IMG/VR virus record: IMGVR_UViG_3300031758_000285
Span: 1-34,232 of that record
Origin: a virus
Reading direction: 5' to 3' (one strand)
Length of the DNA: 34,232 bases
The position numbers were made by a program, and so were the translations under genes. Positions 2,257-30,164 of this stretch are shown one piece after another. Under the pieces are notes generated by a model. The model was given only the letters and a program-made list of their open reading frames with translations, searched no databases and was not told the DNA's origin. Numbering within the stretch: position 1 is the first letter of the stretch; each line of letters begins with the position of its first letter.

Positions 2257-2886
2257 TTACATCATCTTTTTACACTTATCAAAGTGCCAATGTTTCATAG
2301 CACTCATACCACCTTCCAAATGACAATGTGGACAAGTTAGACGTTGTTGCGGTTTTCTTAAATTTAATTTAGGTTTTCCTTTTTGTGCTTCACTAATTTT
2401 CTTTCTTGTTTCTTCTGTAATTGGAGATCTTTTGGTCCACGCTGCTTTCATTTTTATTATTGTTTCAGCACTGCGTTTTTTTCCTTTGTTAGATAATTGT
2501 CTTTTTTTAACTGATTCTGGAGTTTGTTTCATTCCTTTTTTTGCGAGCCCAATATTTTTCTTATGCTCATCTGTTAATTTTACACCTTTATGCGAATCAC
2601 TCAGTTTTTGCTTTGTTTCTTCACGCCATATACGGTTTTTGCCTGCCTGTCTAAGTTTTTCTTTTCTTGCTTCAGTGTAACTGGCTTTTATCTCTTGGCT
2701 TAGTTTATTGCGATGTTCTTGTTTCTGATAATAATCTCTTAATGAATTACTAATTTTCTCCCTTCTCGCGGGATCAGCAGCAGCAATTAATTTTTCATCG
2801 CTAACATTGTGTTTGGGGTTCTCCCGTAGTGTTTGTAATAATTTTTTGAAATCTTTTGCGGAGATCACACCATTTTTTAGTGGCAT
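2257..2886 (-). CDS. NUMOD3-repeat and zinc-finger DNA-binding protein, homing-endonuclease-like but without a visible nuclease domain
   Basis: 209 aa from the ATG at 2886, which has GGGAGA about 8 nt upstream; a longer frame from a TTG at 2901 has no such support. The protein is very Lys-rich. Residues about 90-175 hold five units of roughly 17 aa (for example TDEHKKNIGLAKKG, ITEETRKKISEAQKGK), the pattern of NUMOD3 DNA-binding modules found in GIY-YIG and HNH homing endonucleases. The C-terminus has CPHC and then HWHFDKC, a probable C2HC zinc finger of the kind that ends many phage homing endonucleases. The N-terminal 90 residues lack GIY-YIG and HNH motifs and look like further helical DNA-binding repeats. 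The gene overlaps the ATPase stop by 10 nt, ends in its own terminator and is more AT-rich than its neighbours, suggesting an acquired gene. It could be a nuclease-less remnant or a regulator. Confidence 0.8.
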   Translation of the reverse strand: MPLKNGVISAKDFKKLLQTLRENPKHNVSDEKLIAAADPARREKISNSLRDYYQKQEHRNKLSQEIKASYTEARKEKLRQAGKNRIWREETKQKLSDSHKGVKLTDEHKKNIGLAKKGMKQTPESVKKRQLSNKGKKRSAETIIKMKAAWTKRSPITEETRKKISEAQKGKPKLNLRKPQQRLTCPHCHLEGGMSAMKHWHFDKCKKMM

Positions 2887-3752
2887 TTTTGTTTCTCCCA
2901 ACGGGCACGATAGTCACGTTTGTTTGCGTATTTGGCCATATACCGCCATAGTTTGTCTTCTACAAATCTCACAGAGGTTTCTTTCACCTGTGTCCAATTG
3001 TCCCACAACCAATGCAACATTTCGGCTTTTTGATCTTCTGTTGCGCCTATACACATATTGGTATTCCAAACTACATCAGCGATCCAACCCCAATAAGTTT
3101 CTTGATCCATTATCAAATCTTCATAGGTAACTCTACTATAGATTGCGTGTTTATTGTTTAATGGTACCCATTTTGGTGACCCAATTGCATACTGATTCAG
3201 ATCTTGTGCCGTGGCCAAAGGAGTATTCATTGTAAAAATAAATTTTACACGACCATCAAACGGAACTATGAAGCCTGTGCGATCTGGATACATACTTTTC
3301 CAATGTTCAATAGCTTCTTGTTCTAATGTCTCGGCTTGACTTACTTGCGCACCTAAACTGGTATTGTACTCCAAGCGATCTCCAGAATTTTTGTCCATTG
3401 CAATTTTAAACATATCAAGAAAGCCGGTGCTTGGTGTAAACAATCCATTCATATCATCAATATACACAGCAACAAATTCTTTGGGTTGAGCCAAATATAC
3501 CGCTACAGCTATAGTTTTGATAAATGCCCAAGGTTTCATATCGCCTTTTAAGGTCACCATTTTAATATTCTTTTTATCTGCGATTGTTTCCACTGTGTAA
3601 CTTTTACCTACACCTGGTTGGCCTGGAATGTACAGGTGATGGTCTTGATCATCAAAAAATTCATTGACCGCGCTGAGAAACAACTGCCGGTAATCTTGTC
3701 CTTTAATTAAAAAAGCCTGGTGCTGTGCACCAAAGTGATCATTGAAAGCCAT
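2877..3752 (-). CDS. AAA+ family ATPase
   Basis: 291 aa. Visible motifs are Walker A GQPGVGKS (44-51), Walker B VAVYIDD (94-100), a sensor-1 Asn in FIFTMN (N176), a candidate arginine finger in AIYSRV (R207) and a possible sensor-2 Arg in SVRFVEDKLW (R262). The order and spacing fit a single AAA+ module with a small helical lid; I see no added protease or DNA-binding domain. AAA+ proteins of this size can be helicase loaders, MoxR-like remodelers or DNA-handling factors. The sequence alone does not choose, but this is the only candidate replication-related enzyme in the window. It has its own SD (AAGGA) and a candidate promoter directly upstream, and the NUMOD gene follows with a short overlap. 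Confidence 0.88.
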   Translation of the reverse strand: MAFNDHFGAQHQAFLIKGQDYRQLFLSAVNEFFDDQDHHLYIPGQPGVGKSYTVETIADKKNIKMVTLKGDMKPWAFIKTIAVAVYLAQPKEFVAVYIDDMNGLFTPSTGFLDMFKIAMDKNSGDRLEYNTSLGAQVSQAETLEQEAIEHWKSMYPDRTGFIVPFDGRVKFIFTMNTPLATAQDLNQYAIGSPKWVPLNNKHAIYSRVTYEDLIMDQETYWGWIADVVWNTNMCIGATEDQKAEMLHWLWDNWTQVKETSVRFVEDKLWRYMAKYANKRDYRARWEKQKCH

Positions 3753-3833: not shown

Positions 3834-4472
3834 CTACTCGCTACGCAAAGTTTGGTTATAGAACCAAGTGTCCTGTTCAGTTGACCATTTTTGTGTGTTT
3901 TCCACTGTGTAGATTTTTGTAGAGATTTTGAAGTCTGGCGTTTTCATTTCTTTGGGAACCATACTAACATCATACCAAAGGCAGCGGTTGTTGGGCTGCA
4001 CAGCATACTGACCTGAATCCATTTGTATGACATTGAAACTTTTGTGCTCGTCTGCTGACTCTGAGAACCCAACATTTAGGCAGTTGTGATCTGGAGCGGC
4101 TTGGTCAATGGTAAAAAGATAGTTGCCCCAGTGATACTGCTGATCTCTGCCGTAGAACTTGACTTTCAATCCACGCAGGTTTGATTTTTCTATAACTGCT
4201 ATGTCGTAGGCCAAGCAGTCCCAGATCTGCAGGTGATCTAGTGGCAAGGGGTTGTCAACTGCTTGCCACACAAACGCGGATATAGGCAGTTTGTCGTAGA
4301 TGGCGCCATAGTTGATCAGCATGGCCTCAATACGGAATGCCTGACCTTTGATGCTTTTTACTGTGAGCCAGTAGCAGGGTTCCAGATCACCATGACCCCG
4401 TTCATGGTCATAGAGATATTCTGCACGCACGTAACATTTGATTGCTGGCACATTGGCCACTAGATATGACAT
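3834..4472 (-). CDS. Conserved-looking phage hypothetical protein
   Basis: 212 aa, with SD AAGGAAATATC before the ATG at 4472. Rich in Tyr, Trp and His with many beta-type stretches (for example CYWLTVKSIKG, VKFYGRDQQYHWGNYLF), no signal peptide, membrane segment or motif I recognise. The composition suggests a compact soluble beta-rich fold. It sits between the secreted small protein and the promoter of the ATPase gene and is the last gene before that promoter. Function unknown. Confidence 0.75.
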   Translation of the reverse strand: MSYLVANVPAIKCYVRAEYLYDHERGHGDLEPCYWLTVKSIKGQAFRIEAMLINYGAIYDKLPISAFVWQAVDNPLPLDHLQIWDCLAYDIAVIEKSNLRGLKVKFYGRDQQYHWGNYLFTIDQAAPDHNCLNVGFSESADEHKSFNVIQMDSGQYAVQPNNRCLWYDVSMVPKEMKTPDFKISTKIYTVENTQKWSTEQDTWFYNQTLRSE

Positions 4473-28711: not shown

Positions 28712-30164
28712 TTAGGCGATGTTGGCGTAGTTTGCTGATGTGATATCGTAATCAATACCTTTCCACATCACGATGTCTCCTGGGTTATAGAACACAGCAG
28801 TGGCTTCTGCTACTAGAGCAGATGCCGCACCGTAGATTGGCTGCGGAATGTCATCGTTACGTGTCACAGGCGTGATGTAACCCATCTTGATGTTGCGTGG
28901 ATTGAATGCCAGCAACATTGAAGGATCGCCACCATAGCTCAGCTTGTTCTGCTGCTCTGTGTCAATCCTGAGACGGAAACCAAAGTCAGTGATATAAACA
29001 CTGGTGGTGTTCATAATCTCTGTGGGATCAGTCATATTCACACGATAGATGTCGTTATTAGCGCCACCACGTGCAATCACTTCTGTCAGCACTGAACGCA
29101 GTCCAGGACCAACCACGATGTTTGTGGGAGCACCACCGCCATCAAACGCATCAGCAAGAACTTTGTTCAGCGCTTTGCGTGTGAATGTGTAGGTTGTGGT
29201 GGGCACAACAACGTTGGCAGCGGAAACGTCAACGTTTCCTGATTTGCCCTGTACCATCCAAACAGTGGAACCATCGTTAACAGCATTGGCCACGTTACCA
29301 ACACCACCTGATGCTGTGAGTGCGGGTGTGACTGTGCTGCCATTGCTGGCCTGGTTGAATGCAACAGTGTACTGCTGATAAGCATTGGCTGCGGCTGTGG
29401 TTAGATCGCCGAACTTGAGGTTCTGCTGACCATATGACGCAACGCCACCCATCACGCGGTTGGTTGAACCGCCTGTGGTGATGCCTTTGGCACCTGCTGT
29501 ATACAGCAAGCTCTGGTTCATATCACGACCCAGTGCCACTGCTTCTTTTTCTTCTACCTGGTATTCCAAATATGTTACGCTTGCTTACGCAAGGGAGAAA
29601 TCTCTTCGGATTTCTCTCTACCACTTCAATCAACAGTTATATGGTAGTTCAGACTATCGCATCATCCACTTGGGATGTCTTCTCACTTAGTCGTTCAGGC
29701 TGCACAGTTACCTTGCTTGCCCCTTGTTGTCCACTGCTGGACTTCCAAGTCAATCAGAGAAAATTTTCATTTATGTGTTACCACATAAGGGCACAAATTC
29801 TATGCTCGTCACCGGTATTGGTTTCTTCACGACGTAGTGTACCTTCAGTTTCAACTGGGCCAATAAAGACCTGTGTGTAGTTGTTACGGACGATACGCTG
29901 TGTGGGGCTCTGGCCACCATTCTGCGTGAAATACTGGAAGCCATTGTTAACGTTCACTTTAGGTGAACGCAGGCTGTCAGTTTCCCATTCCCAAATACGT
30001 GCGTGGATTTGGATGGGGTCAATCATTGACAGTGTGGTTGCCTCTAAACGAGAGATCAATGTCAACGTGGTGTCAAAGCCACGCTGTTCTGAACTACCAC
30101 GGCCGCCAACTTGGGTATCACTGGTGATACCTGGGTTTAGGTTTAGTGCGGTTACTGCGGACAT
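28712..30164 (-). CDS. Major capsid protein, SU10/DUF5309-like, split by a group I intron
   Basis: Exon 1 (30164-29802) and exon 2 (29566-28712) join in frame to 405 aa, reading TGDEH then EYQVEEKEAVALGRD. Strong SD (AAGGAG). Exon 2 contains the features of HK97-fold capsid proteins of the SU10/DUF5309 group: the LGRDMNQSLLY helix, GGGAPTNIVVGPGLRSVL, VYITDFGFRLRID, and an end region ending in AVFYNPGDIVMWKG. Without splicing, exon 1 runs seven codons into the intron and stops, and exon 2 has no proper start. It follows the scaffold-like gene and precedes a terminator, as expected for a capsid gene. Protein identity is strong; splicing is inferred from RNA structure. Confidence 0.87.
29567..29801 (-). 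ncRNA. Group I self-splicing intron, 235 nt, ORF-less
   Basis: 5' site after the U of GACGAGCAU, 3' site after UUUG (omega-G, 29567). P1: exon GAGCAU with internal guide GUGCCC (29794-29789), a U·G pair at the cut and one mismatch. P2: UUAUGUG/CACAUAA with a GUAA loop (29771-29788). P3: UUCUC/GAGAA (29757-29761, 29680-29684). P4: CUUG/CAAG and P5: GUCCA/UGGAC joined by A-rich gaa/aa (29723-29749). P6: GGC/GCC (29698-29722). P7: GACUA/UAGUC (29688-29692, 29652-29656). P8: CAUCC/GGAUG (29663-29677). P9: CUACCA/UGGUAG (29618-29647), then P9.1 (8 bp, 29595-29616) and P9.2 (29580-29593, GUAA loop). P10: exon GAAU with AUUU before the guide. The sites restore the capsid frame exactly. The core resembles phage group IA introns. 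Confidence 0.92.

What the first reader, a model, noticed from the sequence alone, without database searches (positions are those of the whole stretch)
29567..29801. ORF-less 235-nt group I intron inside the major capsid protein gene
The capsid frame is cut by 235 nt that break translation on both sides. Seen in the sequence: P1, P2 with GUAA loop, P4-P5 with A-rich junction, P6, P7 (GACUA/UAGUC), P8, P9, P9.1, P9.2 and P10 can all be drawn, P3 more weakly, and the predicted sites rejoin the frame at codon 121/122. Established: group I introns use U·G at the 5' site and omega-G at the 3' site and pair both exons through the guide, all met here. Inference: it splices itself. An intron in a structural gene that must be expressed at very high level, without an encoded endonuclease, is unusual: spread would need a helper or the element is purely vertical.
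Basis: partly seen in the sequence, partly recalled or inferred. Interest (0 to 1): 0.88.

Follow-up and report, generated by a model that had tools for sequence, protein, structure and literature searches.

The report
Self-splicing intron in capsid gene
The gene for the main shell protein of this uncultured bacterial virus is interrupted by a 235-base piece with every mark of a self-splicing RNA, and it belongs to a large, largely unannotated clade of small introns that sits almost only in virus capsid genes.

Summary
Confirmed. Minus strand 29801-29567 is a 235-nt ORF-less group I intron between codons 121 and 122 of an SU10-type major capsid protein (MCP) gene. Rfam's group I model matches (28.9 bits, E 4e-5, under its cut-off of 50). 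A 95%-identical phage (L001) has the uninterrupted gene; a second phage (L002) carries the same intron with 2 changes, both structure-preserving.

The premise that a capsid-gene intron is unusual fails. A core-pattern search hit over 120 stretches with relatives; 124 of 139 assigned introns lie in MCP genes of six sequence families, at 24 or more positions, up to three per gene. Most are 196-279 nt, and none in 20 loci reaches Rfam's cut-off. Generic phage group I introns sit in MCP genes in only 20-32 of 113 cases. The intron is not purely vertical: its nearest relative outside this phage type lies in an unrelated MCP family. All three empty sites carry different synonymous codons at exactly the guide-paired positions. 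Splicing was not observed. No helper endonuclease was identified; the one candidate ORF lacks a recognisable catalytic domain.

The parts
29802..30164 (-). 5' exon of the MCP gene (codons 1-121)
   Evidence: SU10_MCP (PF17236) when joined to exon 2
29567..29801 (-). group I intron, 235 nt, no ORF
   Evidence: natural empty site in L001
28712..29566 (-). 3' exon of the MCP gene (codons 122-405 and stop)
29802..29807 (-). P1, exon strand GAGCAU; last U makes the U.G pair at the 5' splice site
   Evidence: read from the sequence; empty alleles read GAACAC
29789..29794 (-). P1, internal guide GUGCCC (intron nt 8-13)
   Evidence: 5 of 6 positions pair
29795..29798 (-). P10 guide AUUU (intron nt 4-7), pairs with 3' exon GAAU at 29563-29566
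29771..29788 (-). P2, 7 bp with GUAA loop
   Evidence: (minimum-energy fold)
29757..29763 (-). P3 5' strand UUUUCUC (partner 29678-29684)
   Evidence: 98.2% paired, 6/7 pairs covary; L002 changes U.G to U-A
29678..29684 (-). P3 3' strand GAGAAGA
29723..29749 (-). P4-P5 domain: P4 29746-29749/29723-29726, P5 29738-29742/29729-29733
   Evidence: P4 100% paired; P5 about 90% with compensatory changes
29698..29721 (-). P6: 29719-29721/29698-29700
   Evidence: 100% paired, all 3 pairs covary
29688..29692 (-). P7 5' strand GACUA (partner UAGUC 29652-29656): guanosine-binding site
   Evidence: invariant because it was part of the search pattern
29652..29656 (-). P7 3' strand UAGUC
29663..29677 (-). 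P8 hairpin
   Evidence: 5/5 pairs covary
29618..29647 (-). P9 hairpin
   Evidence: 4/5 pairs covary
29596..29615 (-). P9.1 hairpin
   Evidence: 7/7 pairs covary
29580..29593 (-). P9.2 hairpin CUUGC-GUAA-GCAAG
   Evidence: L002 changes the loop GUAA to GCAA, still GNRA
29567..29567 (-). omega-G, last intron nucleotide

Best explanation
It is an ORF-less group I ribozyme that interrupts the major capsid gene between codons 121 and 122. The transcript folds into the P3-P9/P4-P6 core, binds guanosine in P7, cuts after the U of the P1 U.G pair, and ligates the exons at omega-G, restoring the 405-aa capsid protein. It belongs to a clade of small introns that has repeatedly settled in MCP genes of unrelated phages. 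Shown here: anatomy, covariation, intronless alleles, clade membership, host-gene bias, crossing between gene families. Inferred: self-splicing in vivo, and that spread is by recombination after a DNA break made by an endonuclease supplied in trans or since lost, with a few flanking bases co-converted.
For: RF00028 match E=4.2e-5. Uninterrupted alleles L001 (95% aa), L003 and L004 at the same codon. 55 related introns: 95.3% of cells paired against 36-47% when slid, 29/41 pairs with double-sided changes, covariation score 0.572 against at most 0.121. No clade intron in L001, L003, L004. 124/139 assigned clade introns in MCP genes; the PHROG tally of exon pieces agrees: phrog_283 52, phrog_9953 19, phrog_1357 18, phrog_267 4, phrog_1328 2, phrog_14242 2 of 131. 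The intron tree needs 19 host-gene changes against 8 if each gene had one origin; the window's nearest relative outside SU10 is in a phrog_267 MCP. Intron 2/235 different from L002 against about 6% in the flanking coding sequence, Fisher p=2e-4. Three intronless alleles read GAACAC|GAG, both intron alleles GAGCAT|GAA: synonymous changes at -4, -1, +3, each fitting P1 or P10.
Against: No RNA or splicing data. The Rfam score is below the curated cut-off. P1 has one A.C mismatch and P10 is only 4 bp. No catalytic homing endonuclease was found in the window, and the record is a linear fragment. The low intron divergence could also be structural constraint, and the junction codons could be compensatory substitutions instead of co-conversion.
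Confidence: 0.93

Rival explanations
1. A decayed group I intron: it folds like one but no longer splices, so the capsid gene in this assembly is a broken minority allele.
For: One P1 mismatch and a short P10; the Rfam score is below cut-off.
Against: L002, a separate metagenome contig, keeps the intron with only two changes, both structure-preserving, and both exons stay open and about 95% aa identical. Whole-core covariation shows the clade is under selection for the fold. The MCP is essential.
Confidence: 0.04
2. Intron helped in trans by the window's own NUMOD3 protein (2257-2901) as a collaborative-homing endonuclease that cuts the empty MCP site.
For: Free-standing NUMOD3 ORF with PHROG homing-endonuclease matches. 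It is absent from the intronless L003 and L004 records. Collaborative homing of ORF-less introns is known (PMC3984707).
Against: The ORF has only NUMOD3 repeats and a C-terminal Cys/His cluster; no GIY-YIG or HNH domain was found. L003 and L004 are only about 70% identical, so absence is weak evidence. GIY-YIG is absent from all 50 related records.
Confidence: 0.08
3. The intron spreads by RNA-level reverse splicing and reverse transcription, retargeted by guide changes, not by endonuclease homing.
For: Many distinct sites (at least 9 in P22-type, 11 in N4-like, 4 in phrog_9953 MCPs), host-gene changes on the tree, and few endonuclease motifs close to the introns.
Against: No reverse transcriptase was looked for or seen. 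LAGLIDADG ORFs do occur at N4-like MCP introns, so DNA homing probably operates in the clade.
Confidence: 0.12

Closest known systems
Mycobacteriophage LittleE capsid intron and BAKA tail intron (PMC3706429)
   Same: Intron in a phage MCP gene, U at the 5' exon end, G at the intron end, intronless alleles in sister phages; BAKA's is ORF-less and 265 bp. Both were shown to splice by RT-PCR.
   Different: LittleE's capsid intron is 819 bp and encodes an antisense LAGLIDADG-like protein; the BAKA intron is in a minor tail gene. Their sequence relation to this clade was not tested. Splicing of the window intron is untested.
Lactococcal phage Tuc2009 capsid intron (cited in PMC3706429)
   Same: Group I intron in a capsid subunit gene.
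   Different: Not compared at sequence level here; known only through the citation.
Group I introns of jumbo gut (Jug) phages (PMC12363816)
   Same: Many small (about 206 nt) phage group I introns with mostly free-standing endonucleases; 37 of 76 with splicing supported by metatranscriptome reads.
   Different: Reported mainly in terL, nrdD and DNA polymerase genes; no capsid preference in the passages read.
Collaborative homing: free-standing endonuclease plus ORF-less intron, as in cyanophage psbA (reviewed in PMC3984707)
   Same: ORF-less intron at one site, helper nuclease encoded elsewhere.
   Different: No cutting of the MCP site by any nuclease is shown here.

Membership tests
Group I intron | Conserved catalytic core P3-P9 with P7 guanosine site | tested here: met
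   RF00028 alignment spans model positions 1-253; all core helices present and all but P4 and P7 covary
Group I intron | U.G wobble in P1 at the 5' splice site | tested here: met
   Sequence: exon GAGCAU with guide GUGCCC; the intronless alleles have C instead of U
Group I intron | Omega-G at the 3' end and P10 with the 3' exon | tested here: met
   Intron ends ...AUUUG; 3' exon GAAU pairs with AUUU
Group I intron | Precise removal restores the host gene | tested here: met
   Uninterrupted homologues L001, L003, L004 at the same codon
Group I intron | Guanosine-dependent self-splicing | not testable with these tools
   No RNA reads or biochemistry available
Rfam RF00028 | Score at or above the gathering cut-off (50 bits) | tested here: not met
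   28.9 bits; none in 20 loci with clade relatives reaches it
Mobile (homing) group I intron | Intron-encoded homing endonuclease | tested here: not met
   No ORF in the 235 nt
Collaborative-homing pair | Free-standing catalytic endonuclease that cuts the empty site | tested here: inconclusive
   Only a NUMOD3 ORF without a recognised catalytic domain; the record is a fragment

The most novel reading that the evidence does not exclude
A previously unrecognised clade of 200-280-nt, mostly ORF-less group I introns is specialised on major capsid genes: it has invaded at least six MCP sequence families at two dozen or more sites, up to three per gene, in uncultured tailed phages. It is missed by Rfam's default threshold and almost absent from deposited phage genomes.
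Probability: 0.68. Interest if true: 0.65.

Novelty: new variant of a known kind. Interest (0 to 1): 0.52.

Why it matters
Capsid genes are marker genes for viral surveys. Introns in them split the gene in annotation (as in MW202674.1, where the P22 coat gene is filed as two CDS with a spurious ORF between), so the marker is miscounted or truncated. A clade that almost always sits in one of the most heavily expressed late genes and crosses between unrelated capsid families asks directly why capsid genes: late co-infection recombination, conserved targets, tolerance, or a benefit. It also shows that Rfam's default cut-off can hide a whole group of phage ribozymes, which a better model would recover.

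Tried and rejected
Coding insertion or frameshift: rejected, homologues lack the residues and all frames hold stops. Group II intron or other Rfam family: no match. Assembly chimera: rejected, L002, a separate metagenome contig, has the same intron at the same codon. A long co-conversion tract: not seen; window and L002 differ at 11/100 sites just upstream of the intron, so only -4, -1 and +3 are intron-specific. NUMOD3 ORF as proven helper: not supported. Family search with RF00028 in the whole record: no hit at its threshold. tblastn of the MCP against deposited phages: no match. First control (upstream pieces) under-counted MCP hosts because it often caught intron ORFs; it was repeated with downstream pieces.

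Full report
Observation. The MCP frame on the minus strand is cut by 235 nt at 29801-29567 with stops in all frames; joining 30164-29802 to 29566-28712 gives a 405-aa protein that matches SU10_MCP PF17236 (E 1.5e-24) and phrog_1328, major head protein. The record is a 34-kb linear virus fragment. cmscan of the region finds RF00028 Intron_gpI over the full model, 28.9 bits, E 4.2e-5, under the gathering score of 50; a whole-window scan misses it, presumably through filtering.

Natural empty sites. IMG/VR gave four relatives. L001 encodes the uninterrupted MCP at 95% identity; L003 and L004 (about 70% and 68%) are also uninterrupted; L002 (95-96%) has the intron at the same codon.

Structure. 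L002 differs from the window intron at two of 235 positions: one turns the P3 U.G pair into U-A, the other turns the P9.2 loop from GUAA to GCAA. From 55 clade members I counted pairs of the structure written from the window: 95.3% of cells paired, 29 of 41 pairs with double-sided changes, covariation score 0.572 against 0.048-0.121 for slid partners. P3 is 98% paired with 6 of 7 pairs covarying, so it is not weak. P7 never varies because it was part of the search pattern and says nothing. The structure comes from the window, which favours it against slid versions, but the size of the gap and the compensatory counts go far beyond that. MFE z-score is -2.8.

The junction. All three intronless alleles read GAACAC|GAG and both intron alleles GAGCAT|GAA. 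The three changes are synonymous and fall on P1 positions -4 and -1 (the latter makes the obligatory U.G) and P10 position +3. An intron dropped into the L001 sequence without its flank would lack the U.G pair. This fits co-conversion of a few bases with the intron, or later compensatory change; I cannot separate the two. Further out there is no tract of reduced divergence.

Relatives. BLASTN similarity to the window intron is 67-100% over the aligned part, mostly 70-89%. Host genes by tblastn: 124 of 139 assigned introns are in MCP genes (P22 coat 58, N4-like/Phage_capsid_4 32, phrog_9953 19, an unannotated MCP-like group 8, SU10 4, phrog_267 3); the rest are in tape measure (5), portal (4), TerL (4) and NrdD (2) genes; 2 unassigned (family identities). 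The unannotated group is called MCP-like by inference. In a list dereplicated for similarity 63 of 74 are in MCP genes. PHROG tallies of exon pieces agree. Insertion points cluster into at least 9, 11 and 4 positions in the three largest MCP families, and single genes hold up to three introns. Of 81 introns whose length could be estimated, 71 are 196-279 nt.

Control. A generic group I pattern (AGACTA-N20-50-GATATAGTCC) gives introns whose upstream pieces are mostly HNH ORFs and whose downstream exons hit major head PHROGs in 20-32 of 113 (the range allows for members that match two families). So capsid genes are common homes for phage introns in general, and the window's clade is far more concentrated. 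Both samples are the first rows of a capped scan, not random draws.

Spread. The intron tree needs 19 host-gene changes where 8 is the minimum; labels are still clustered (shuffled mean 30.9) and many deep branches are weak. The window and L002 are joined at 100/99, and their nearest outside relative, L109 (89% over 198 nt), lies in a phrog_267 MCP, a different sequence family from SU10_MCP. Between window and L002 the intron differs at 2/235 sites and the flanking sequence at about 6%, p=2e-4: recent exchange or strong constraint.

Helpers. The window holds one homing-endonuclease-like ORF, 2257-2901, with NUMOD3 repeats and a C-terminal Cys/His cluster but no recognised GIY-YIG or HNH domain. 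HNH_3 is present in 11 of 50 related records, including about 3.4 kb upstream of the intron in the L109/L123 phages (below the family cut-off there); GIY-YIG in none. LAGLIDADG motifs lie in ORFs antisense to N4-like MCP genes, most close to their introns, like LittleE. Endonuclease-bearing members therefore probably exist, and the ORF-less state is most simply a loss or a trans arrangement.

Known context. A capsid-gene intron with demonstrated splicing is published for LittleE, with an ORF-less tail intron in BAKA (PMC3706429). Small phage introns with spliced reads are reported for Jug phages (PMC12363816). I found no paper describing a capsid-specialised intron clade, within an open-licence library only. 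Only 3 of 50,697 deposited phage records match the intron, one being MW202674.1, where a P22 coat gene is annotated as two CDS with a spurious ORF in the intron; the clade model matches there with E 2.7e-45. None of the introns in 20 loci passes Rfam's gathering cut-off.

Verdict. The individual intron is a well-supported group I intron in a known type of place; the surprise lies in its clade. Splicing and mode of spread remain inference.

Noticed in passing
window 2257-2901 (-): Free-standing ORF of NUMOD3 repeats plus C-terminal Cys/His cluster, no recognised nuclease domain, between an AAA ATPase-like gene and the terminase region; absent from L001-L004 records.
   Followed up: partly
L078:4874-6741: Four introns of this clade within 1.9 kb of one contig, with a LAGLIDADG-type ORF; host gene not identified.
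   Followed up: no
MW202674.1 16569-18084 (L250:2193-3708): Deposited complete podovirus genome has its P22 coat gene split into two CDS with a spurious hypothetical protein; the gap is an intron of this clade.
   Followed up: yes
L027, L032, L033, L056, L062, L084, L114, L119: LAGLIDADG-motif ORFs on the strand opposite to N4-like MCP genes, most at or near their introns.
   Followed up: partly
L040:5130-5305 and downstream: A divergent clade intron in another SU10-type MCP, apparently at a different position from the window's, followed by an ORF that looks LAGLIDADG-like.
   Followed up: partly
window 3834-4472 (-): Strong match to phrog_3704, labelled ferredoxin / auxiliary metabolic gene (E 6.8e-85).
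   Followed up: no
L130-L249: Generic phage group I introns also sit in major head genes in roughly a fifth to a quarter of cases, so capsid genes may be a general intron hot spot in environmental phages.
   Followed up: partly
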